A stretch of 64,000 nt of DNA from Marinobacterium mangrovicola (lineage in GTDB: Bacteria > Pseudomonadota > Gammaproteobacteria > Pseudomonadales > Balneatricaceae): contig NZ_SMFU01000009.1 of NCBI RefSeq assembly GCF_004339595.1, positions 62,001 to 126,000 of the forward strand, read 5' to 3'. The first letter of the stretch is position 1. Every line of letters begins with the position of its first letter. The translations under genes and the position numbers were made by a program. Positions 30,811 to 42,800 of the stretch are shown here, piece by piece. A model generated the notes under the pieces. That model had not been told where the DNA came from. It was given only the letters and a program-made list of their open reading frames with translations, and searched no databases.

Positions 30811-32766
30811 GTGAACACATTGTCCTCGTTCAAATCCGCAGTTATGGCAGCAAACAAAGGACTGGTACTGTTTTTCCGCAGCGAGCGCGGCCTGATCGCC
30901 ACGCTCTTCATCCTCTATTTTATCGCCACGCTGACCCTCACCGGCCTGACTTTCCGCGCCAGCCAGATCGCCCAACTTTCCCAGACCCGCTCAACGCTAC
31001 TCACCGCTGCCCGCTCCGGCGGCCACCTCATCGGGCGCTACTTTCACGATATCTACAGTCTGAACCGGCAGCCCGGCGACGTGCACTACCGGCTGATCGT
31101 CGAGACACTGGATCAACTGGTGGCCGATCTGCCAGAGGTAGAGTACGTCTATTCCATGGACGTGGTGGGCGACCAGGCGTTTTTCATCGTCAGCAATGAA
31201 ACCCGCCTTGATCTGCAACGCGGCACACCTAGCCGCTTCTATAACCCCTATGGTTCGGCACCGAAGGAGCTGTTTGAGGCCTATCACTCCAAAACGGACA
31301 TATTCACACCGGTGTACACCAACGAATGGGGCACTTTCCGCTCCGCCTTTGTGCCAACAAAACGTTCCGACGGCTCCTATTTTGTTATGGCTGCCGACAT
31401 GAAGGTCGATAGCCCCAATACCCTGTTGATCAACAGCCTGAAGCTGGCCGCGCTGGTATCACTGATCGGCTTGGCACCGATCTATCCGTTATTGCGGGTT
31501 TACCATCGCCTGCGTCGTCGGCGGGAGGAAGAGCTGGAAGCTGAGCTCTACTTCGACCCGATCACCGGTCTGCCCCGCATCACCAAAATGGAAGCGGATC
31601 TGGCGGACAATACCGAACCACTGGGCGGCATACTGATTAATCTGGACGAGTTTCACGCGGTCAATACACTATTCGGCTACGAGGTAGGCGACCACCTGCT
31701 TGCCGAAATCGCGCAGGCACTGCGGGCTCAACTCCCCGCCGACACCAAGCTGTACCGATCACTGGTGGACGAATATTTCATCCTGCTGCGCGGTTACGAT
31801 GAAACCCGTGCTGTTCAACTCACTTCGCGTCTGCTGGCCAGCGTATTCGAACCGATCGAAGCGGATGAACAGCGCCGTATTACGCTGACCGCGCGCGCCG
31901 GCCTTGTTCTGAACGAAATAGATCCGGTCCGCCTACAGCACGACGCTCGTGAAGCAATGGATGAAGCCGCACGCAGCGGTATCGAGATGCTCGTTTTCAG
32001 CGATGCGCTGCGACCGGAGCAACGCTACGAAGACAACCTGCACTGGCTCAATGTGCTTAACGATGCATTCCGCGATCACCGGGTACGGCCCTGGTTCCAG
32101 CCCATTCTCGATACCACAGAAGGAAAGATACGCCACTACGAGGCTCTGGCCCGAGTGGTGGATAAGGATGGAAAGATCCATACGCCGTTTCATTTTCTGC
32201 CGGTAATCCGCAAAAGTCATCTCTACCGACAATTGACCTGCGCCATTATCGACCAGAGCTTCGCCCTGTTCGGCCCGCTGACTTCAAGCCTGTCGATCAA
32301 CCTGACCCGCTTCGACCTGATGGATGAAGAGACCATCGCCTACCTGTTGCAGGAATACGAGCACCACGGCCTTCACGGCCGACTGATTATCGAGGTCATA
32401 GAGTCCGAATCGATCGGTTACCAGGACGAAGTACTGAGAGTGCTGAAACAACTCAAGTTGGCGGGAATAAAACTCGCCATCGACGATTTCGGCAGCGGCT
32501 ACTCCAACTTCGACCAGATGCTGAAGATCGATGCCGACTACCTGAAGATCGATGGTTCACTGATCAGCTGCGTACTGACCAGCCACAAGGCAGGCGCGTT
32601 GGTCGATGCAATCATCAGCTTTGCCAGCAGCCTGGATATCCCTCTGATCGCCGAATTCGTCGAAGATCAGAAGATTCTCGACTACCTGAAAATCCGGGGC
32701 GTGCAGTTTATGCAGGGTTTCACCATCGGCAGACCCGCGCCCGCCGATCAGCAGCAGATTCTATGA
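30811..32766 (+). CDS. Membrane GGDEF/EAL protein, probable c-di-GMP phosphodiesterase
   Basis: 651 residues: N-terminal helix (about 30-52), a periplasmic sensor domain (about 55-205), second helix (about 209-229), a degenerate GGDEF domain (about 245-400) where the active loop reads SLVDEYF, and an EAL domain (about 410-651). The EAL keeps EALAR, NLTRFD, EVIES, DDFGSGYSN, DYLKIDGS and MQGFTIGRP, so phosphodiesterase activity is plausible while cyclase activity is not; the degenerate domain may bind GTP as an allosteric site. GTG start at 30811 with AGGGG upstream. Confidence 0.9.
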   Translation: MNTLSSFKSAVMAANKGLVLFFRSERGLIATLFILYFIATLTLTGLTFRASQIAQLSQTRSTLLTAARSGGHLIGRYFHDIYSLNRQPGDVHYRLIVETLDQLVADLPEVEYVYSMDVVGDQAFFIVSNETRLDLQRGTPSRFYNPYGSAPKELFEAYHSKTDIFTPVYTNEWGTFRSAFVPTKRSDGSYFVMAADMKVDSPNTLLINSLKLAALVSLIGLAPIYPLLRVYHRLRRRREEELEAELYFDPITGLPRITKMEADLADNTEPLGGILINLDEFHAVNTLFGYEVGDHLLAEIAQALRAQLPADTKLYRSLVDEYFILLRGYDETRAVQLTSRLLASVFEPIEADEQRRITLTARAGLVLNEIDPVRLQHDAREAMDEAARSGIEMLVFSDALRPEQRYEDNLHWLNVLNDAFRDHRVRPWFQPILDTTEGKIRHYEALARVVDKDGKIHTPFHFLPVIRKSHLYRQLTCAIIDQSFALFGPLTSSLSINLTRFDLMDEETIAYLLQEYEHHGLHGRLIIEVIESESIGYQDEVLRVLKQLKLAGIKLAIDDFGSGYSNFDQMLKIDADYLKIDGSLISCVLTSHKAGALVDAIISFASSLDIPLIAEFVEDQKILDYLKIRGVQFMQGFTIGRPAPADQQQIL

Positions 32767-32777
32767 CATAGCACGAA

Positions 32778-33263
32778 TCAAAAAGCACCCGGCGCGCACT
32801 GCAGACAGGTCAGCCCCAGCTCGCGCCAGCGCGCCACCACCGCATCGCGGTCATCCAGTACCAGCCAGGGGCTAAAGCCATCGGCGCGGATCTGCGCCAG
32901 CAGCTGTTGCTTCACCGCCTCGTCATCCACCTCATCGTCACCCAAAGCGCGCAGGTAGGCGCCGTCGTAGGGAATCTCATGACGATCCAGCCACTCCAGC
33001 GTATGTTCCCGGTGTGAGTCGGGACGCCCGCTGCAGATCACGATGCGCTGCCCCTGGGATTTCAGAATCTGCACCAACGCCCGCACCGGCTCGATCACCG
33101 GCGCCTGCTTCATATGCTCAAAAAACGGATCCCAGGCTTTCTTCTCACTGAGCACCCACTGATGCACCTCGGTCGGATCGAAGTGCGCCAGGGTGCCGTC
33201 CACATCCACGATGACCGTATCCGCATTATCTAAATCAGACCTGTTTAACTCAGACTTATTCAA
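32778..33263 (-). CDS. HAD-family phosphatase resembling the PNKP 3'-phosphatase domain
   Basis: 161-residue HAD phosphatase. Nucleophile motif DVDGT at residues 20-24, motif II in VICSGRPDSHREHTLEWL, motif IV LVLDDRDAVV. The SGRxDxxRExTxxWLxxHxIPYD pattern matches the 3'-phosphatase domain of T4/bacterial polynucleotide kinase-phosphatases, but no kinase domain is attached. Start taken as TTG at 33263: AGGAG lies 7 nt upstream and it overlaps the phosphatase stop by 8 nt. Its first 15 codons are three L-(N/D)-x-(S/A)-(E/D) repeats. Last gene of the importer operon; probably dephosphorylates an imported compound. Confidence 0.75.
   Translation of the reverse strand: MNKSELNRSDLDNADTVIVDVDGTLAHFDPTEVHQWVLSEKKAWDPFFEHMKQAPVIEPVRALVQILKSQGQRIVICSGRPDSHREHTLEWLDRHEIPYDGAYLRALGDDEVDDEAVKQQLLAQIRADGFSPWLVLDDRDAVVARWRELGLTCLQCAPGAF
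33219..33263 (-). repeat. 15-bp imperfect tandem repeat, 3 units, at the HAD gene start
   Basis: Reading on the minus strand, three 15-mers encode LNKSE, LNRSD and LDNAD directly from the TTG start. The first true fold residues follow at once (TVIVDVDGT). Confidence 0.6.
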
Positions 33264-33831
33264 GCCAGTTCTCCTCAAGTGTTGTCATCTGCCAGCCACT
33301 CTCGACCGGCTCGATCAGTACCGGCTGGGCGTTATCGATCCGCGGTCCGTGCGGCGTACCTGTCTGCAGTTCGCGGATCACGCGGTATACGCCGGAGTGC
33401 GCCACAACCAACGGCAGTTCATGCACCGCCAGCAACCGGTTCAGTGTTTTCAGTACGCGCCCTCGAAAGGCGCTCCAGGGTTCGCCATCCGGCGGGGTTT
33501 CCTCGTACGGGGTCTGCACACTCAGCGGCGCCAGCTCCAGGCTGCCCCAGTGGCGTTCGTTCAGCCCTTCAAAGCTGTAAAGAGGATGCCGCGGCACCGC
33601 CAGATGGGCCGTGCGCCGTGCCCGGTAAAGGCCGCTGGTGGCCACGCAGCTCCAGCAGTGACGGTCCAGCCAGTTAGCACTCAGCGCCTGCTGTTCACCG
33701 AGCTTGCTCAGCGCCACATCGCTAGCGCCGCAGATGATGCGGTGAGCGTTCGTTTCGGTCTCGCCATGACGCATAAACACGAAGGGTTTGCGGGTCAGGC
33801 TCTGGCTCGGGAAAGGGGATGAATCACTCAT
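33256..33831 (-). CDS. Histidine phosphatase family protein
   Basis: 191-residue member of the phosphoglycerate-mutase-like histidine phosphatase superfamily. Catalytic RHGE at residues 21-24 (FMRHGETETNAHRIICG) and the second histidine in LVVAHSGVYRVI; a conserved acidic partner lies in GLNERHWGSLEL. Cytoplasmic. ATG 33831 is preferred to a TTG at 33855, though its ribosome site is weak. It follows the MBL gene by 31 nt and overlaps the HAD gene by 8 nt. Substrate unknown; the family removes phosphate from sugars, nucleotides or cofactors. Confidence 0.85.
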   Translation of the reverse strand: MSDSSPFPSQSLTRKPFVFMRHGETETNAHRIICGASDVALSKLGEQQALSANWLDRHCWSCVATSGLYRARRTAHLAVPRHPLYSFEGLNERHWGSLELAPLSVQTPYEETPPDGEPWSAFRGRVLKTLNRLLAVHELPLVVAHSGVYRVIRELQTGTPHGPRIDNAQPVLIEPVESGWQMTTLEENWLE

Positions 33832-33862
33832 CTGTCGTCTCAATCGTGCTTTCAATACGGGT

Positions 33863-34942
33863 TCAATCGATAGCTATTGCGGCGTTTGCCAACCGGCCTG
33901 CCCCGCCCTGAGCGGGCAGGTAAAGCGCATCGCCCATTACCTCGCGCCAGCGCACCAGCGGCTCAAGGCCAGTAAACAGCGGGATGACCCGGCGTGCTCC
34001 GAGGAGCTGGCTCAGACGACTCAGGTCTGAGCTGCGCGGGTGTACATTCCAGCGCAGCCAACAAGCCCGGCCCGCCTCCACATCGGCACGCGCCTTGGGT
34101 GGCGTATAGCCGGTGTAGATCAGCTGCCGGTCGCCGCGCTCTATCAGCCGTTCGATCTCTTCGCCCAGTCCTTCGGGGCTGCCGATCAACGCCACATGGC
34201 TCCGGTCCAGCGAACCTGAGCCAGACAGCCGCTCTAAACTCTCCCTGACGCCTGGCTGAAAACAGCCCTCAGGCAGGGACTTAAGAGTGTCCAGCTGATC
34301 GGCGCAGCGCTGATCCATGGCCCAATCGATCCCCTGTTCATCCAGCCAGAGCGCCATCTCCAGCGCCCGTCCCGAGGCGGGTACCGGCAACAGCGTCGGT
34401 TGTTCAAGTCGCGCCTGCAGCGCCGCGCGGCAGTCGGTCTGAGGTTTGTCATAGAGGCCGTAGGAGGCATCCAGTAGCGCCAGTTCAGCCGGGGGCGGCG
34501 GATCAAAGCGGAACAGTGTCGATTCCAGCGAATAGTCTCCGCTGTAGAACAGCCCGCCGCCGATCTCGAAGTGCAGCCAGACTCCGCCCAGCGAATGGCC
34601 CGCCTGTCCGCAGCGCACGCGGATACCGGCGATCTCCAGCTCACCGTTCAGAGGTAGCGGCCGGTGTTGCAGATAGTCAGGCAGGGCCGCAGCAACAGGC
34701 TCAGTTGTATAAACCGGCACATCCGCAGGCAGCCGGTCAGCGGCACCGATATGGTCCACATGGTCATGACTGATGATGACCGCATCCAGTGGCCGCCCCT
34801 CCGGCAGCTCCCAGCCGATCTCCATACCCGGCTCCAGTGCACCGCCAGCCTCGATCAAAATACGGGCGCCAGCGGTTTCCAGCAGCAAAGCCGCCGGCGC
34901 CTTGCCACCCAGGCCGCTGAGGATCTCAAGCCTTGCACTCAC
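33863..34942 (-). CDS. Metallo-beta-lactamase-fold hydrolase, beta-CASP-like
   Basis: 359-residue MBL-fold enzyme. Metal site HDHVDH at 59-64, His116 in GHSLGG and Asp136 in FYSGDYS. The second half has a nucleotidase-like arrangement, LLPVPASGRALEMAL followed by a late NVHPRSSDLSRLSQLL and VIPLFTG, comparable to the beta-CASP insert of RNA/DNA nucleases. GTG start overlaps the ATPase stop by 4 nt. In an importer operon it may open or cleave a phosphodiester or cyclic phosphate; a nucleic-acid nuclease role is possible but less obvious from context. Confidence 0.8.
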   Translation of the reverse strand: MSARLEILSGLGGKAPAALLLETAGARILIEAGGALEPGMEIGWELPEGRPLDAVIISHDHVDHIGAADRLPADVPVYTTEPVAAALPDYLQHRPLPLNGELEIAGIRVRCGQAGHSLGGVWLHFEIGGGLFYSGDYSLESTLFRFDPPPPAELALLDASYGLYDKPQTDCRAALQARLEQPTLLPVPASGRALEMALWLDEQGIDWAMDQRCADQLDTLKSLPEGCFQPGVRESLERLSGSGSLDRSHVALIGSPEGLGEEIERLIERGDRQLIYTGYTPPKARADVEAGRACWLRWNVHPRSSDLSRLSQLLGARRVIPLFTGLEPLVRWREVMGDALYLPAQGGAGRLANAAIAID

Positions 34943-35967
34943 CGCGCGGACTCCAGTGACCAGCCGCGGCTGATTTGAACTGCGGCACGCTGGCCCGCCT
35001 GCAGTGGCTGGTGGTGATAGGCCATCAATTCAGCACCGCTGGCCAGGCGCAGCTTGAGTTCATAGCGCTCACCGCGATAGATCGACTCGGCCACATCCAC
35101 GGCGATACCGCGCTCACTGACGCGCACATCCTGGGGGCGGATCAGCACCGGCGTAGCAGCGCCGACGTCGCAGGAGAGGCCTTTCAGCAGCGCCTCTTCA
35201 CCCAGCTCCATGCCAGCACTGACACCGTGTACAGGTGCCACGCCTCCCTGGCCGATAAAGCCGGCCACCCATTCACTGCGCGGGAAGGTGTAGAGTGCCT
35301 GTGGCGTACTCCACTGCTCCAGACGCCCCGCATTCATCACCGCGATACGACTCGCCAAAGACATCGCCTCGGCCTGATCGTGGGTGACATAGATCATCGT
35401 GGCGCCGGTACGGCGGTGGAATTCGCGGAACGCCTCTTCCATGGATGCGCGCAGGTGGCGATCCAGGTTGGCCAGCGGCTCATCCAGCAGCACCACGTCC
35501 GGTTCGGTCACCAGGCAGCGCGCCAACGCCACACGCTGACGCTGACCGCCGCTAAGCTCTTTCGGCGCCCGATCCGCCAGGTGCGTCAGTTGCACCGCTT
35601 CCAGCGCCTCGCCGATGCGGCGTTTGCGCTCACTGTCGGCGAGCTTTTGCATCTTCAGCGGATAGCCCACGTTCTGCGCCACGCTCATGTGCGGCCAGAG
35701 TGCGTAGGACTGGAACACCATGCCCATGCGACGCTGTTCCGGTGGTAGATGCACACCTTCTCCCGCCAGCAACTGACCGCCCAGACGGATGGAACCGCCG
35801 GTGATAGTTTCAAAGCCCGCCAGCATCCTCAGCATGGTGGTTTTGCCGCAGCCGCTCGGCCCCAGCAGCGCGACAAACTCACCCGGCTCGATCGCCAGGT
35901 TAAGCCGGTCCACCGCGGGCTGATCACCAAAATATTTGCTGACGTTATCCAGAATCAGGTTCGCCAA
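34939..35967 (-). CDS. ABC importer ATP-binding protein (Fe3+/aminoethylphosphonate/spermidine type)
   Basis: 342 residues: Walker A GPSGCGKTT (about 37-45), signature LSGGQRQRVALARC, Walker B VVLLDEPLANLD, H-loop YVTHDQ, and a C-terminal TOBE-like domain (from about 240). The closest look is FbpC/PotA/PhnT. It overlaps the permease end by 13 nt. Supplies energy to the adjacent fused permease. Confidence 0.92.
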   Translation of the reverse strand: MANLILDNVSKYFGDQPAVDRLNLAIEPGEFVALLGPSGCGKTTMLRMLAGFETITGGSIRLGGQLLAGEGVHLPPEQRRMGMVFQSYALWPHMSVAQNVGYPLKMQKLADSERKRRIGEALEAVQLTHLADRAPKELSGGQRQRVALARCLVTEPDVVLLDEPLANLDRHLRASMEEAFREFHRRTGATMIYVTHDQAEAMSLASRIAVMNAGRLEQWSTPQALYTFPRSEWVAGFIGQGGVAPVHGVSAGMELGEEALLKGLSCDVGAATPVLIRPQDVRVSERGIAVDVAESIYRGERYELKLRLASGAELMAYHHQPLQAGQRAAVQISRGWSLESAR

Positions 35968-37655
35968 GGTATAACTCCTTGCGGCAGCCAGCGCCCCATC
36001 AGGCTGAGTAACAGCATCAGCGCGACCACCATCAAAACGATTACGACGGAGATGGCAGCGGCCAGCACGCTGTCGCCGCCCTCATCCAGGTTGAATACGA
36101 GCACGCCAAGCGTCTCGTTACCGGCACTCCACAGCAGCGCCGATACAGTGAGTTCGTTCACCGCGGTGAGAAACACCAGCAGGCCTCCGGCAAACAGCGC
36201 CGGTGCGACCAAGGGCAGCACGATCTGCACCAGTCGGCGCAAAGGCCCGGCCCCGGCGAGCTGCGCCGCCTCTTCCAGCGAGCCATCGAGCTGCCCGGCG
36301 CTGGCCTGCACCGGCTTCAATGCGATGCTCATAAAGCGGGCCAGGTAGGCGATAAAAATAATCGCTAGCGAGCCGTACAGGCTCACCTCGATCACCGGCA
36401 GCGGCTGGGCGAACAGCAGGATGCAGGCGATCGCCAGTACCACGCCCGGCAGCGCGTAGGGAATCTCGATCAGGCTGTTCAGGCTGGTGCGGGCCCGCAC
36501 CGACATGCGCGACATCATCCAGCCCAGCGGCAGGCTCAGACACATCAGGAACAGCGCAGCACCGCTGGCCAGCAGCAGGCTGTTGCCGAAGGCACGGGCG
36601 GTGGAGCCCTGACGCGTCAGCATCTCCACGTAGGCACTCAGGGTGAAGGTATCGCTATCCAGCGCGACGCCCAGCGCCGGTACCAGGGAGCTAATGATCA
36701 GGGCGATCAGGGGCGCCACCAGGATCAGCGCCAGCACCGTCCAGAGCAGCAGTTGCAACAGCAGACGATGACGGCTATCCAGCACAAACGCCTGGGCGCG
36801 GCCGGTGTGGCCCAGCAGTTCATACTGGGCACGGCGCACAAAACGCTGCTGCACCAGCACGCCGATCAGCGCCAGCACACCGATCAGCATGGAAAGCACC
36901 GCCACATCGCTGAGCATGCTCTGGCCGAAACCCGCCATATGCTGATAGATCAGCGTTGGCAGCACGTAGTAGGAGGCAGGAATCCCCAGCATGGCAGGGA
37001 TACCAAAGTTGCCCAGCGCCGAGACAAAGGCGATGGCCGCCGCAGCCACCAGGCCACTGCGACAGAGCGGAAAGATCACATCGAGCCAGACGCGACGCTG
37101 ACTGGCGCCGTTGATCCGTGCCGCCTCGATCAACTCCGCCGGCATATTGATCAGGCTGGATCTCAGCGTCAAAAACACCAGCGGCGCATGCTGAATCCCC
37201 ATCAGCAGGGCGATGCCCTCGGCGGAATAGAGCGGCTGGGACGAACCCAGCGCCGGAGCGATTCCTAACGAATTCAGCAACGGGCTGCTCGGTCCGAACA
37301 ACTGCAACCAGCTCAGCGCCGTCACCTGGGGTGGAATCATCATCGGCAGCATGAAGCAGAACACCAGCCACTGACGACCGGAGACATTGGTCAGCGACAA
37401 GGCACAGGCGAACAGCGCGCCCAGCACCAGCGCAATCAGCGTGGCCAGGCCGGAGGTATAGAGACTGTGATAGGCCGCCTGCCAGGTGGCGCCATCACGC
37501 AGCACCCGCGCCAGTGGCGACTCACTGCCAAGCTCCAGCTGGCTCAGCGCTTCGACCATCAGGCGCAGGCTGGGCGTGAGGCTAAGCAGAAGGATCAGGG
37601 AAAGGATCAGGGCGACCAGCCAGCGGGGCTGGTCACCGGAGAGTGCACGCAACAT
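35955..37655 (-). CDS. Fused ABC importer permease (two FbpB/PhnU-V-like halves)
   Basis: 566-residue double-length permease with about 12 helices. Each half carries an EAA-type loop: EAARINGASQRRVWLDVIFP in the first and EEAAQLAGAGPLRRLVQIVLP in the second, so one polypeptide forms the whole membrane core. ATG 37655 follows the binding-protein stop by 4 nt; the frame is open for 24 more codons upstream but these lie within the previous gene. Typical of iron(III), thiamine or 2-aminoethylphosphonate uptake systems. Confidence 0.9.
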   Translation of the reverse strand: MLRALSGDQPRWLVALILSLILLLSLTPSLRLMVEALSQLELGSESPLARVLRDGATWQAAYHSLYTSGLATLIALVLGALFACALSLTNVSGRQWLVFCFMLPMMIPPQVTALSWLQLFGPSSPLLNSLGIAPALGSSQPLYSAEGIALLMGIQHAPLVFLTLRSSLINMPAELIEAARINGASQRRVWLDVIFPLCRSGLVAAAAIAFVSALGNFGIPAMLGIPASYYVLPTLIYQHMAGFGQSMLSDVAVLSMLIGVLALIGVLVQQRFVRRAQYELLGHTGRAQAFVLDSRHRLLLQLLLWTVLALILVAPLIALIISSLVPALGVALDSDTFTLSAYVEMLTRQGSTARAFGNSLLLASGAALFLMCLSLPLGWMMSRMSVRARTSLNSLIEIPYALPGVVLAIACILLFAQPLPVIEVSLYGSLAIIFIAYLARFMSIALKPVQASAGQLDGSLEEAAQLAGAGPLRRLVQIVLPLVAPALFAGGLLVFLTAVNELTVSALLWSAGNETLGVLVFNLDEGGDSVLAAAISVVIVLMVVALMLLLSLMGRWLPQGVIPWRT

Positions 37656-37659
37656 CGGA

Positions 37660-38640
37660 TCAGCCGCCGAAGATTTCGCTGAAACGTGCCTTGTTGGCTT
37701 CAGCGTTCTCAAGCGCATCGGCTGCATCGAACGGCATCAGTTTGATCTCGCTGCGGGCCGGGAAGCCTTCTGGTGGTTCCACCTGATCGCTGGCCGGCAG
37801 GTAACCCTGGCTGCGCACCAGTTGCTGGCCTTTTTCAGAGAGCACGAAGTCTACAAACTTCTGCGCCGCATCCAGGTTCTTGGCGTCTTTCATGATCGCC
37901 ACCGGCTCGGTGACCATGCTGCCGCCCTCGGTGGGGAAAGCAAACTCGATGGGCGAACCCTTGGCCGCTTCGCGGATGGCAAGAAAATCAACGATCACAC
38001 CGTAGGGCTTGTTACCGGATGCGACGGCCTTGAGCACGCCGCCGTTACCGCCCTGAGCCTGGGTCTCATTGTCCGCCAGTGATTGGTAGTAATCCCAGCC
38101 CAGATCCGGATTGGAGGTAAGCGTAGCCAGGTGGATCAGCGCCGCGCCGGAGTACAGCGGGCTCGGCATCGCCACCTGCCCCTTGTATTCGGTACCGGCC
38201 AGGTCAGCCCAGCTTTGCGGCGCTTCGGCGGCACGCTGGTGGCGCACTATACCGGTAGTGATCAGCTTGGTGCTGTAGTAGTAACCCTGGGGCTCATAGA
38301 GGGATGCATCGTAGTGTTCACGCTGATCACTGAGGTAAGGCTGAAGGTAGCCATCCTGCTTCAGCGATTCCATGGTGACGCTATCGGCGATCAGCAGCAG
38401 GTCCGCACGGGAGGCGCCGCTCTGCAGCTCGGCACGCAGGCGCGCCATCAGTTTGGTGGTGCCGTCGCGCACCCACTCCACCTCGATCTCCGGATAGGCT
38501 GCATTAAACGCGTCTACCGTTGCCTGGGCGTCGGTGTTGGGCTGGCTGGTGTAGAGCACCAGTTTGTCATCGGCCTGGGCCAGCAGCGGCAGGGACAGTC
38601 CGGCGATACCTACACAGGTCAGCAAGCTTTTCTTGAGCAT
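37660..38640 (-). CDS. Periplasmic substrate-binding protein of the ABC importer
   Basis: 326 residues with a signal peptide (MLKKSLLTCVGIAGLSLPLLAQA) and the type II binding fold seen in iron(III)/AepX-like proteins (DDKLVLYTSQPNTDAQATVDAF). A strong AAGGAGG site 7 nt before the ATG at 38640 suggests high expression. The iron-binding tyrosine pair of FbpA-type proteins is not clearly present, and phosphonate genes are absent, so the ligand is open. First gene of the operon, divergent from the DeoR regulator. Confidence 0.9.
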   Translation of the reverse strand: MLKKSLLTCVGIAGLSLPLLAQADDKLVLYTSQPNTDAQATVDAFNAAYPEIEVEWVRDGTTKLMARLRAELQSGASRADLLLIADSVTMESLKQDGYLQPYLSDQREHYDASLYEPQGYYYSTKLITTGIVRHQRAAEAPQSWADLAGTEYKGQVAMPSPLYSGAALIHLATLTSNPDLGWDYYQSLADNETQAQGGNGGVLKAVASGNKPYGVIVDFLAIREAAKGSPIEFAFPTEGGSMVTEPVAIMKDAKNLDAAQKFVDFVLSEKGQQLVRSQGYLPASDQVEPPEGFPARSEIKLMPFDAADALENAEANKARFSEIFGG

Positions 38641-38690
38641 TTCAGCACCTCCTTGAATTCGATGCTGAAAAGGTAATGTCATGTTCTTAC

Positions 38691-38757
38691 ACGAAAATGA
38701 CAGCCAACTTTCGTTTCAACGCTCAATGCTTTCGTTTTATCGCCATTACCGCTTTCG
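38691..38757. promoter_or_regulatory. Candidate DeoR-family operator boxes
   Basis: Two identical CTTTCGTTT boxes (38708-38716, 38729-38737) are 21 bp apart, two helical turns, with a shorter CTTTCG (38752-38757) and an inverted ACGAAAATGA (38691-38700). DeoR-family repressors often bind repeated TTTCGTTT-like boxes. The cluster sits between the regulator start and the importer operon start, so it could control both. Confidence 0.55.
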
Positions 38758-38778
38758 CCGGTAAAAAGGACAGATTTA

Positions 38779-39537
38779 ATGCATAAACGAAGACAGGCCA
38801 TCACCGAACTGGTCAACACTCGCGGCCGCACCGAGCTGCAGCAGCTGGCGGATACTTTTGATGTGTCGGTGCAGACGATCCGCACCGATGTGCGCATCCT
38901 GGCGCAGCAGGGGCTGGTGTTGCGCAACCACGGCGAGGTGATGCCCTTTCCGCACCGGGAAAACATCAGCTACGACCAGCGCCGCATCAGAAATGCGGCG
39001 GGCAAACGCAAAATCGGCGAACTCTGCGCCACCTGGCTGAACGGTTTTCAGAGTGTTTTTCTCGGCACCGGCTCCACCCTGGCGGAACTGGCGGCGCAGT
39101 TGGGTCCACTGCGGGGATTACAGGTGTACACCAATAACCTGCACGCCGCACGACTGCTCTGCGAGCACCAGGACTGCGCGCTGACGGTGGCCGGCGGTCG
39201 GGTTCGTTTGCGGGATCAGGATGTAATCGGCGGCGATGCACTACGCTTTTTCCAGCGCTATCACGCCGATATCGCCATCACCTCGGTGGGGGCTATGGAC
39301 GCAGCGGGAAAACTCTACGATTACAACGATGACGAGGTGATGGCGCGGGAAGCGATGCTGGAGCAGAGCCGTTTCCATATTCTGCTGATCGACAGCAGCA
39401 AGTTCGACAACAGCGCCCCCTGCAGCGCCGGCCAGCTGGAACAGTACGACCTGGTGGTCACCGACGCGCCCCTGTCGAGCCGGCTCCAGGGCCAGTTGCT
39501 GGCCGGTGGTGGTGAACTGCTGCAGCAGAAGCCCTGA
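38779..39537 (+). CDS. DeoR-family transcriptional regulator
   Basis: 252 residues. N-terminal winged helix-turn-helix (RRQAITELVNTRGRTELQQLADTF then VSVQTIRTDVRIL, residues ~4-45) and a C-terminal DeoRC sugar-phosphate-sensing domain (from about 75: VFLGTGSTLAELAAQL, YTNNLHAARLL, DIAITSVGAMDAAGKLYDYNDDE, LLIDSSKFD). Such regulators usually respond to phosphorylated sugars or polyols. Divergent from the importer/phosphatase operon and the obvious candidate to control it. Confidence 0.92.
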   Translation: MHKRRQAITELVNTRGRTELQQLADTFDVSVQTIRTDVRILAQQGLVLRNHGEVMPFPHRENISYDQRRIRNAAGKRKIGELCATWLNGFQSVFLGTGSTLAELAAQLGPLRGLQVYTNNLHAARLLCEHQDCALTVAGGRVRLRDQDVIGGDALRFFQRYHADIAITSVGAMDAAGKLYDYNDDEVMAREAMLEQSRFHILLIDSSKFDNSAPCSAGQLEQYDLVVTDAPLSSRLQGQLLAGGGELLQQKP

Positions 39538-40990: not shown

Positions 40991-42454
40991 TCAGCGCTCC
41001 TTATTTGCATCCAAGCTACAGGGCCTGCGACCGGTATCAAGTCTGCACGCTTCGCTACGCTCGGCCAGCTCGATGGTTTCGCTGATACTGGGCTCCTCGT
41101 AGAGCAGCTCCAGCTTGGCCGCTATTTCAGTGCCGACAAAGCGCTGCGGTCGGGATGGGGTAAAACCATCCTTTTGCTCACGTTCGGTGACCCAGTCACG
41201 GGCCAGATCAAAGGCCTCGATAAAGCGCGGTTCCCGCGGCAGTGCCTGACGGAAGTAGGCATCGCCGAAGTAGGTAAAGTCGCTTTGCGAGCCGCAACCA
41301 AAGGAGCTGCGATCCTCTGCCGCGGCCGTGATGACCAAGGACTGCGGCGACTTCAACGCCTCGACAAAACCACCTGAGTAGCAGCTGGACACCAGCAGCA
41401 TCCGCCACTGGATACCGGCTCTATCCAGCGCCTGGCGCAACTGCTCAGGTGTCAGGTCGTTCAGGCCAAGATTACCCAATTGCAGTGAAAAGTAATGATC
41501 GGGACTGCCGTGGGAAGTCATGAACAGGAACAGCAGGTCCTCATCCAGGTTCATCTTCGCCGCGATACCATCCAGAGCCGTCTGCAGGTTCGGCGCGTTG
41601 GCCAACGGATAGCGCTCCGTAGTCGCCGGGTTATTGGCCAGTACCAGGGAGTGCGAGCCGGTGCCGAAGTCGCTGTCGAACTGCTCGCGCACGTGTTCCA
41701 CTTCCTTGAGGAAAACATTCTCTTCACCGTAGCCACCCAGCGCCAGCAGGTAGAGTTCGGTCTTGCCCTCCTCCCCTGGCTCAAGCCGTGACAGGCCAGC
41801 AGCCAGCAGTTCCGGCTGGGCGTAGTAGATCTTTTCCACATCCAGCTCCGGCGCCGGTTCGCTGTACTCCTGTGGATAGTCGGTGTACCAGAGCGGAATC
41901 TGCGGAAACAGCCAGAAGCTGCCCAGCAGACCCAGCGGAAACAGCACCGCAGTCGACGCCACCCTCGGCCAGCGCAGGCCAGGGTTGAGCTTCAGGGCCC
42001 GGCTCAACACCAGCCACTGCCAGCCGAAGAAAGCGAGCAGCCCGGCCCAGTAATAGGTGTAGGGCAGCTCAAGCCGCAGCAAGAGTTCACTGACCGGGTG
42101 CGTCAGCACCAGGATAGGCAACTGCGCCGCTGCTACGGCCAACAAAGTGCGGCCGAATACCCGGGCGCCGCCACCGGCCATGCGGGCGACCACCAGCAAC
42201 AGCAGAATAACCAGCAGATTCACCGCCGCCAGGTAGTTGGCGCCGTAAGGGCTGAACGCCCGCGGTGGATCAACCGTGAAGAAGGCAAGCGCCACCTGCA
42301 GCAGAGCCAACAGCGCAAAAAGCGCGATCAGCTGTCCCAGCGAATAATGAAAACGAAGACTGCGCAGGGTAAAGCCGAACGCCAGCCCACAGCCCGCCTT
42401 CAGGTTGGTCATCAGATTAGCAACCGGATTTCCCGCTCCTTGCTGCACCTGCAT
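40991..42454 (-). CDS. Membrane-anchored C13 (legumain/caspase-like) cysteine peptidase
   Basis: 487 residues: six or so N-terminal helices (about 40-185), then a periplasmic or cytoplasmic C13 peptidase domain. The catalytic dyad is visible as His315 in FMTSHGSPDH and Cys358 in LLVSSCYSGGF. ATG at 42454 is chosen for AGAGGA upstream; the open frame to 42601 shows no signal or homology-like sequence. Gammaproteobacterial C13 membrane proteins exist but have no known substrate. The C-terminus is acidic then basic (ACRLDTGRRPC). Confidence 0.85.
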   Translation of the reverse strand: MQVQQGAGNPVANLMTNLKAGCGLAFGFTLRSLRFHYSLGQLIALFALLALLQVALAFFTVDPPRAFSPYGANYLAAVNLLVILLLLVVARMAGGGARVFGRTLLAVAAAQLPILVLTHPVSELLLRLELPYTYYWAGLLAFFGWQWLVLSRALKLNPGLRWPRVASTAVLFPLGLLGSFWLFPQIPLWYTDYPQEYSEPAPELDVEKIYYAQPELLAAGLSRLEPGEEGKTELYLLALGGYGEENVFLKEVEHVREQFDSDFGTGSHSLVLANNPATTERYPLANAPNLQTALDGIAAKMNLDEDLLFLFMTSHGSPDHYFSLQLGNLGLNDLTPEQLRQALDRAGIQWRMLLVSSCYSGGFVEALKSPQSLVITAAAEDRSSFGCGSQSDFTYFGDAYFRQALPREPRFIEAFDLARDWVTEREQKDGFTPSRPQRFVGTEIAAKLELLYEEPSISETIELAERSEACRLDTGRRPCSLDANKER

Positions 42455-42800
42455 GGTTTCGCTTCCTCTGAATAAAACCGGATTAGCGACCGCGTCGACA
42501 CCCGAGAATAGATAGCCAACCATCAATAGAAGGCTTTCGATAGTCAACGCGGCACTTGATTCTGCCAGTGTACCGGAATGTGACCGAGGCCGTATTTCCA
42601 CGCTGATATGTAAGGGTCAATCTCGGTACAAAAATTTCGCCTGTAGGCCTATTCCCTGGTCAGAAAAACTCTGGAATACTCCAACACATGACTAACACTT
42701 CCGCGCTCCGACGACAGGCTCACTCCACAAGGTTCACCTTGGGATTACGCCTGCCTGCCCGATAAGCGCTGATCGCCTGAGTCACTCAGGCTGATTCTTT

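What the first reader, a model, noticed from the sequence alone, without database searches (positions are those of the whole stretch)
32778..39537. Candidate undescribed system: DeoR-controlled importer with beta-CASP-like hydrolase and two phosphatases
Six minus-strand genes are packed with overlaps or gaps up to 31 nt: binding protein, fused permease, ATPase, MBL hydrolase with beta-CASP-like features, histidine phosphatase, PNKP-like HAD phosphatase. A divergent DeoR regulator, a family that senses phosphorylated sugars, faces it. The import of a phosphoester, cyclic phosphate or oligonucleotide-like compound followed by cleavage and phosphate removal would explain all members. Phosphonate and iron genes are absent.
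Basis: partly seen in the sequence, partly recalled or inferred. Interest (0 to 1): 0.72.

Follow-up and report, generated by a model that had tools for sequence, protein, structure and literature searches.

The report
Phosphate-starvation importer of organic phosphate esters
A set of bacterial genes usually labelled as an iron importer instead looks like a phosphate-starvation system that takes in an unidentified phosphate-containing molecule and cuts phosphate off it with RNA-nuclease-like and phosphatase enzymes.

Summary
Six packed minus-strand genes (binding protein, fused permease, ATPase, metallo-beta-lactamase hydrolase, histidine phosphatase, PNKP-type HAD phosphatase) face a divergent DeoR gene. 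The cluster is not local. In 39 of 39 loci examined that hold the hydrolase, from gamma-, beta- and alphaproteobacteria, the importer genes lie in the same locus. A phosphatase was found in 36 of 39, but its family varies (histidine phosphatase, HAD, DSP, SurE), as does the regulator (DeoR, LacI, SorC-like).

A strict Pho-box pattern occurs 5 times in this 4.98-Mb genome (backward control 2); two of the other four sites precede phoB-phoR and hemB-ppk. Across relatives, strong sites precede the operon in 32 of 47 loci against 6 of 426 control upstreams. A probable Sinorhizobium relative is reported as strongly induced by phosphate stress, under an iron-transport annotation.

The hydrolase model matches beta-CASP nucleases over most of its length. 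In three relatives an EEP-superfamily enzyme stands in its place.

Best reading: Pho-regulated uptake of a small phosphodiester or phosphoester, then cytosolic hydrolysis to phosphate. The ligand is unknown. Nucleotide-like compounds are the boldest candidate not excluded.

The parts
32778..33278 (-). HAD phosphatase, PNKP phosphatase-domain family (DxDGT, SGR, DDRD present)
   Evidence: PF25109 101.8 bits, cut-off 27.6; nearest solved relative Pnkp1 4xrp E 1.7e-13; D25, D27, T29, R85, D143 invariant in 22 of 22 rows, the frameshifted L011 left out
33256..33831 (-). histidine phosphatase, branch 1 (ORF open to 33855; ATG at 33831 preferred)
   Evidence: PF00300 89.1 bits; R29-H30 invariant in 24 of 24
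33863..34942 (-). beta-CASP-like metallo-beta-lactamase hydrolase, 359 aa (GTG start)
   Evidence: model pLDDT 85.1; top five Foldseek matches CPSF73, TTHA0252 and archaeal CPSF chains, TMq 0.76-0.80; motif residues invariant in 38 of 38 rows
34939..35967 (-). ABC importer ATPase with TOBE_2
   Evidence: PF00005, PF08402
35955..37655 (-). fused two-domain permease (ORF open to 37727; start inferred from relatives)
   Evidence: two PF00528 stretches; TIGR03262 189.7 bits, below cut-off 593.25
37660..38640 (-). periplasmic binding protein, AfuA-like (ATG after AGGAGG)
   Evidence: PF13343; nearest solved sequences 8x1a and AfuA 4r72; model pLDDT 86.2, Foldseek top 8x1a, G6P-binding VcA0625
38686..38703 (-). 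Pho box CTGTCATTTTCGTGTAAG
   Evidence: own-genome pattern search 5 sites, backward control 2; only site of that score or better in the 64-kb window; found upstream of relatives
38708..38757 (-). three CGAAAG direct repeats, 23 and 21 nt apart: probable DeoR operator
   Evidence: spacing of 21-22 nt in related gammaproteobacteria; ACGAAAG pair unique in own genome, control 0
38779..39537 (+). DeoR-family regulator, divergent
   Evidence: PF08220 and PF00455; best NCBIfam a GlpR model, 140.4 bits, below cut-off 300

Best explanation
A Pho-regulon organophosphate scavenging operon. Under phosphate starvation PhoB activates the operon from the Pho box (inferred). DeoR, bound to the CGAAAG repeats, keeps it low until a sugar- or nucleoside-type breakdown product appears (inferred). 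The AfuA-like binding protein captures a small phosphodiester, cyclic phosphate or phosphomonoester, and the fused permease and ATPase import it (inferred from family). In the cytosol the beta-CASP-like hydrolase cuts the phosphodiester; the histidine phosphatase and the PNKP-type HAD remove the remaining phosphate; Pi enters metabolism (inferred). Shown here: gene content, conservation, intact catalytic motifs, Pho box and DeoR-type repeats, exchange of enzyme families in the same slots.
For: Pho box: 5 strict sites in 4.98 Mb, backward control 2; of the other four, one precedes a response regulator plus PhoR-family kinase and one precedes hemB followed by ppk. 32 of 47 loci against 6 of 426 control upstreams score >=10. 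All 11 loci without the hydrolase have a site scoring >=9.8 before the binding protein. Enzymes: importer in 39 of 39 hydrolase loci; phosphatase families interchange; an EEP-superfamily enzyme in the hydrolase place in 3 loci. Binding protein nearest to sugar-phosphate binders. S. meliloti SMc04316/17, annotated as iron transport, Pho box, highly induced by phosphate stress (PMC8829014); the S. meliloti relative here is 60.5% identical and has a Pho box.
Against: No ligand, assay or expression datum for this operon. The Pho-box weights are mine, on a recalled consensus. 15 of 47 loci score below 10, among them 4 of 5 LacI/DSP-type representatives (L026, L027, L050, L053) and the Halomonas-type loci L044 and L046. 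Eleven of 28 genomes with the binding protein lack the hydrolase, so the ligand need not be a diester. No phosphatase was found in 3 of 39 hydrolase loci (L010, L025, L055). Two of three AfuA sugar contacts are absent. The fold is shared with ferric and Mg-citrate binders. Identity of L107 with SMc04317 was not verified.
Confidence: 0.62

Rival explanations
1. The ligand is nucleotide-like (nucleoside 2',3'-cyclic phosphate, 3'-nucleotide or dinucleotide from extracellular RNA/DNA) and the operon is a nucleotide scavenging system. (A sharper form of the best explanation.)
For: Enzymes found in the slots have nearest relatives acting on nucleic acids: beta-CASP RNases, PNKP phosphatase, an EEP enzyme whose nearest NCBIfam is ExeM/NucH DNase, SurE 5'/3'-nucleotidase, and a DSP just over the cut-off of PTP-SAK, a domain of RNA repair proteins, in one of two scanned.
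Against: Superfamily resemblance only. The ExeM/NucH, DSPc and NCBIfam SurE matches are below their cut-offs, and the histidine phosphatase's best model is alpha-ribazole phosphatase, also below cut-off. Related solved binding proteins hold small sugar phosphates, PLP, Mg-citrate or iron. No consistent nucleoside-catabolism neighbours were seen.
Confidence: 0.3
2. The ligand is a glycerophosphodiester or sugar phosphodiester, and the system parallels Ugp with an intracellular diesterase.
For: In Phyllobacterium a LacI regulator, ABC genes and a calcineurin-like phosphoesterase adjoin; L102 and L105 have sugar-type ABC genes beside it; DeoR is closest to a GlpR model.
Against: Such neighbours occur in few loci; no gene labelled glycerophosphodiester phosphodiesterase appears in the annotated stretches (PLSDB's gene table is incomplete); the GlpR match is below cut-off.
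Confidence: 0.3
3. It is a ferric iron importer, as many relatives are annotated.
For: The binding protein shares the fold of ferric binding proteins; relatives are annotated 'iron ABC transporter permease'.
Against: Pho box; phosphatases and hydrolase in the operon; PRK11432 ferric ATPase model 282.2 bits against cut-off 496; AfuABC was the same kind of misannotation (PMC4546632, passages). The iron-binding residues were not tested.
Confidence: 0.05
4. It is a 2-aminoethylphosphonate importer (PhnSTU or AepXVW type).
For: Best NCBIfam hits of permease and binding protein are the PhnU2 and PhnS2 models; L103 and L104 lie beside a phosphonate-binding protein gene.
Against: The models score far below cut-off (189.7/593.25, 137.7/392.75); no phosphonate-cleaving gene in the operon; no phnJ in the genome; the cleaving enzymes are of phosphoester type.
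Confidence: 0.04

Closest known systems
AfuABC hexose-6-phosphate importer (PMC4546632, passages read)
   Same: ABC importer of the 'iron' family; binding protein of the same fold, 21-22% identity in the structural match; importer of a phosphorylated compound misread as iron; the phosphate-contact Ser37 position is Thr here
   Different: Sugar-contact His205 and Glu229 positions are Val here, only Asp206 kept; no dedicated hydrolases mentioned in the passages read
P5PAB pyridoxal-5'-phosphate importer (PMC8427247, abstract and outline)
   Same: Related binding protein (6wce, E 1.1e-16); phosphorylated ligand
   Different: Different operon; no such enzymes mentioned in the abstract
S. meliloti SMc04316/SMc04317 'iron transport' operon (PMC8829014, one section read)
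   Same: Probably the same transporter clade (L107, SBP 60.5% identical), with Pho box
   Different: No MBL hydrolase match in L107; a 570-aa HAD plus AAA/HerA-like protein follows
beta-CASP nucleases CPSF73, TTHA0252, archaeal CPSF, RNase J
   Same: Fold over both domains; motifs 2, 3, 4, A and B present
   Different: 359 aa only; motif C His replaced by Phe in 36 of 36 rows covered; sits in an importer operon
AepXVW 2-aminoethylphosphonate importer (PMC8316502, passages)
   Same: High-affinity organophosphorus importer of proteobacteria
   Different: Its host carries phnWAY for 2-AEP breakdown; this operon has no such gene; phosphonate, not phosphoester

Membership tests
Pho regulon | Pho box (two CTGTCAT-like repeats 11 nt apart) in the promoter | tested here: met
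   CTGTCATTTTCGTGTAAG at 38686-38703; 5 strict sites in own genome, backward control 2; 32 of 47 loci against 6 of 426 controls
Pho regulon | PhoB-dependent induction by phosphate limitation | not testable with these tools
   Only literature on a probable relative (PMC8829014)
AfuA hexose-6-phosphate binders | His205, Asp206, Glu229 sugar contacts (paper numbering) | tested here: not met
   HMMER alignment: Val, Asp, Val; residues named in PMC4546632
AfuA hexose-6-phosphate binders | phosphate contacts Ser37 and Thr150 | tested here: inconclusive
   Thr at the first, Ala at the second
PhnSTU-type 2-AEP importers | NCBIfam TIGR03261/3262/3265 above cut-off | tested here: not met
   137.7/392.75, 189.7/593.25, 299.2/457.7 bits
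Ferric iron importers | curated ferric ATPase model above cut-off | tested here: not met
   PRK11432 282.2 against 496
Ferric iron importers | iron-coordinating tyrosine pair in the binding protein | not tested
   No alignment to a ferric binding protein of this kind was printed
beta-CASP nucleases | MBL plus beta-CASP two-domain fold | tested here: met
   AlphaFold model pLDDT 85.1; the 50 Foldseek rows shown are entries of CPSF73/Ysh1, archaeal CPSF/FttA, TTHA0252, Integrator, RNase J and Cas14, TMq 0.60-0.81
beta-CASP nucleases | motifs HxHxDH, His, Asp, A (Asp) and B (His) | tested here: met
   invariant in 38 of 38 rows; motif names and numbering recalled
beta-CASP nucleases | motif C His of RNA-type members | tested here: not met
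   Phe in 36 of 36 rows covered, 2 rows gapped
beta-CASP nucleases | Pfam Beta-Casp/RMMBL domains | tested here: not met
   not listed at E<=1 for any of 12 members
beta-CASP nucleases | nuclease or phosphodiesterase activity | not testable with these tools
   needs an assay
PNKP-type HAD phosphatase | PF25109 above gathering score and HAD motifs | tested here: met
   101.8/27.6 bits; motif residues 22 of 22

The most novel reading that the evidence does not exclude
A dedicated Pho-regulated nucleotide-scavenging pathway: cyclic nucleotides, 3'-nucleotides or dinucleotides are imported whole by an 'iron-type' ABC importer and dismantled in the cytosol by a beta-CASP enzyme that has left RNA processing for nutrition, followed by an RNA-end-type phosphatase, with the diesterase (beta-CASP or EEP) and phosphatase (histidine phosphatase, PNKP-HAD, DSP, SurE) exchanged between lineages.
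Probability: 0.25. Interest if true: 0.82.

Novelty: new variant of a known kind. Interest (0 to 1): 0.6.

Why it matters
A widespread transporter clade annotated as iron uptake would become an organophosphate scavenger in marine, soil and plant-associated bacteria, which bears on how dissolved organic phosphorus is used. It would also be, as far as I recall, the first beta-CASP enzyme tied to small-molecule nutrition rather than nucleic-acid processing. The recurring exchange of phosphatase and diesterase families in one operon makes the ligand directly testable with a small panel of compounds.

Tried and rejected
Local peculiarity of Marinobacterium: rejected, since the cluster recurs in Comamonas, Thalassospira, Phaeobacter, Paracoccus, Azospirillum and Enterobacter records.

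C-P lyase or 2-AEP uptake: models below cut-off, no phnJ.

The neighbouring GGDEF/EAL gene (30811-32766) as a member: among the loci it lies beside the cluster only in L008 and L009 (and the own-genome piece L001), so it was left out.

Literature: six queries for combinations of these enzymes with an importer or the Pho regulon listed no paper recognisable as describing this operon. Searches found 0 papers, 36 found 3, 76 found 9, and 52 listed only 10 of 263. One search listed 12 of 30 and led to the S. meliloti papers; SMc04317 is in 2 papers. That is the basis for saying that no substrate was found in print in that library.

E. coli: a query with the Kosakonia importer genes gave no place covering 80% of the query in 5,426 genomes; the ten rows shown are ATPase-region matches of 11-14%.

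Not resolved: the inverted ATPase in several loci; the phosphatase, if any, of L010, L025 and L055 (the gene after the hydrolase is a regulator-like, an antiporter and a LacI gene).
Full report
WHAT IS THERE. The window lies in a Marinobacterium-like genome (G000, 4.98 Mb; nearest named relative M. lutimaris, MBL 91% identical). The MBL protein has one match in its own genome at E<=0.001, itself.

CONSERVATION. A genome scan with the MBL protein gave 13 named loci, all with the importer next to it. 39 of 39 hold binding protein, permease and ATPase matches in the same locus (the ATPase is on the other strand in L025). Histidine phosphatase matches are in 24, HAD in 23, both in 20, a DSP-type phosphatase in 7, and at least one of these in 34. 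Of the remaining five, L054 has a histidine phosphatase by Pfam and L057 has SurE after the MBL gene. In L010, L025 and L055 no phosphatase was found. The DSP replaces the histidine phosphatase in Salipiger, Alloyangia, Paracoccus pantotrophus, Pannonibacter and unnamed alphaproteobacteria. Regulators are DeoR (23 of 39 loci), LacI or a SorC-type sugar-binding protein. In 398 genomes of the phylum the MBL occurs in 17 and the SBP (E<=1e-50) in 28; all 17 are among the 28. In the order the MBL is in 7 of 194 genomes, the own one included.

WHERE THE HYDROLASE IS MISSING. In the 11 genomes with SBP but no MBL match, three (L098-L100) have an EEP-superfamily enzyme (PF03372, 41-45 bits, cut-off 24.5) in the same operon after the ATPase, followed by genes that in L098 are NUDIX-like and PhzF-like. 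L100's nearest NCBIfam is ExeM/NucH DNase, 43.8 bits against a cut-off of 300. L103 and L104, near-copies, lie beside GntR/UTRA and phosphonate-binding genes. For L096, L097, L101, L102, L105 and L106 the few neighbours scanned showed no phosphoesterase. Devosia has PhoX next door. In S. meliloti a 570-aa HAD plus AAA/HerA-like protein follows. Five plasmid loci show no phosphoesterase directly behind the importer in PLSDB's incomplete gene table (Kosakonia, Sulfitobacter, Salmonella, Qingshengfaniella, Phyllobacterium). The importer is thus the constant part, and phosphoester-cleaving enzymes are a variable but recurrent addition. An SBP tree of 48 rows needs 14 changes of the enzyme label (least possible 7, shuffled mean 28.8); the five DSP rows fall in one clade with L055.

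PROMOTER. Reading upstream sequences showed two features. First, direct repeats of CGAAA(G) about 21 nt apart in gammaproteobacteria; the ACGAAAG pair occurs once in the whole own genome, control 0. In Thalassospira and rhodobacterial loci the CGAAA/TTTCG elements are arranged differently. Second, a Pho box directly before the SBP. A strict pattern gives 5 sites in 4.98 Mb and 2 for the backward control. The other four lie before a response regulator with a PhoR-family kinase, before hemB followed by ppk, before an EAL/CBS/GGDEF gene, and in a stretch where no closed ORF of 150 aa was listed. In 47 representative loci, chosen by me to leave out most near-copies, the best site upstream of the first gene scores >=10 in 32, against 6 of 426 upstreams of other genes in the same loci (Mann-Whitney p 1.6e-25; loci are related, so p is too small). 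The 11 loci without MBL score at least 9.8 each, and in 8 of 11 it is the only such site in 20 kb. Results against: 15 of 47 score below 10. L013, L026 and L103 lie at 8.8-9.8; L010, L027, L028, L044, L045, L046, L049, L050, L053, L109, L111 and L112 are below 8. Some of these keep a degenerate box at the same place (L044, L046), others do not. With four of five representatives weak, the LacI/DSP group may not be PhoB-controlled.

THE HYDROLASE. The model (pLDDT 85.1) matches beta-CASP nucleases: CPSF73, TTHA0252, archaeal CPSF, Integrator and RNase J entries, TMq 0.60-0.81 in the 50 rows shown. Profile search gives the same families first. His59, His61, Asp63, His64, His116, Asp136, Asp158 and His301 are invariant in 38 of 38 rows (L011 left out for frameshifts). 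The position of the RNA-type motif C histidine is Phe in all 36 rows covered. Pfam's Beta-Casp domain is not listed. It is therefore beta-CASP by fold and motifs, but a divergent small branch. That it cleaves phosphodiesters is inferred.

THE BINDING PROTEIN. Nearest solved structures are VcA0625 (G6P), MctA (Mg-citrate), AfuA (G6P), ferric binding proteins and P5PA. At AfuA's three essential sugar contacts it has Val, Asp, Val, while the phosphate-end RxGS motif is RxGT (residues from PMC4546632 passages). A phosphorylated ligand other than hexose-6-phosphate is the natural reading, but the MctA and ferric relatives show that the fold alone does not decide.

LITERATURE. S. meliloti SMc04316 and SMc04317 are described as an operon with a Pho box, predicted iron transport, and among the highly induced core phosphate-stress genes (PMC8829014, section 17 read). 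Another paper calls SMc04317 likely iron uptake (PMC2848018, one passage). That these are the relatives seen in strain Ak57 (L107) rests on annotation, Pho box and family, not on a sequence check of strain 1021. No paper seen here assigns a substrate.

VERDICT. The module is real, conserved and probably part of the Pho regulon. The beta-CASP and interchangeable phosphatase partners are the new part.

Noticed in passing
L025, L110, L111, L113, L114: In several alphaproteobacteria the importer ATPase gene is inverted and convergent to the permease gene, a recurring arrangement.
   Followed up: no
L107:11144-12856: In Sinorhizobium meliloti the importer is followed by a 570-aa protein joining a HAD-IIB phosphatase to an AAA/HerA-like domain, next to an ftsZ gene.
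   Followed up: partly
L066:3916-3931 (G000 C4:277916): A strict Pho-box match lies directly before an EAL/CBS/GGDEF gene in the own genome, hinting at phosphate control of cyclic-di-GMP turnover.
   Followed up: no
L011: In Nitrincola sp. A-D6 the binding protein, permease, ATPase, hydrolase and HAD genes each match in separate pieces, which looks like draft sequencing error.
   Followed up: no
L022:5141-10544: The importer, hydrolase and histidine phosphatase sit on an Enterobacter hormaechei plasmid with IS transposase genes annotated on either side, so the module may move between enterics.
   Followed up: no
L103, L104: Binding protein and permease lie beside GntR/UTRA and phosphonate-binding ABC genes, a phosphorus-gene neighbourhood.
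   Followed up: partly
window 40991-42601: A minus-strand gene of 536 aa with a C-terminal peptidase C13 (legumain-like) domain and, by eye, membrane segments; uncommon in bacteria as far as I recall.
   Followed up: no
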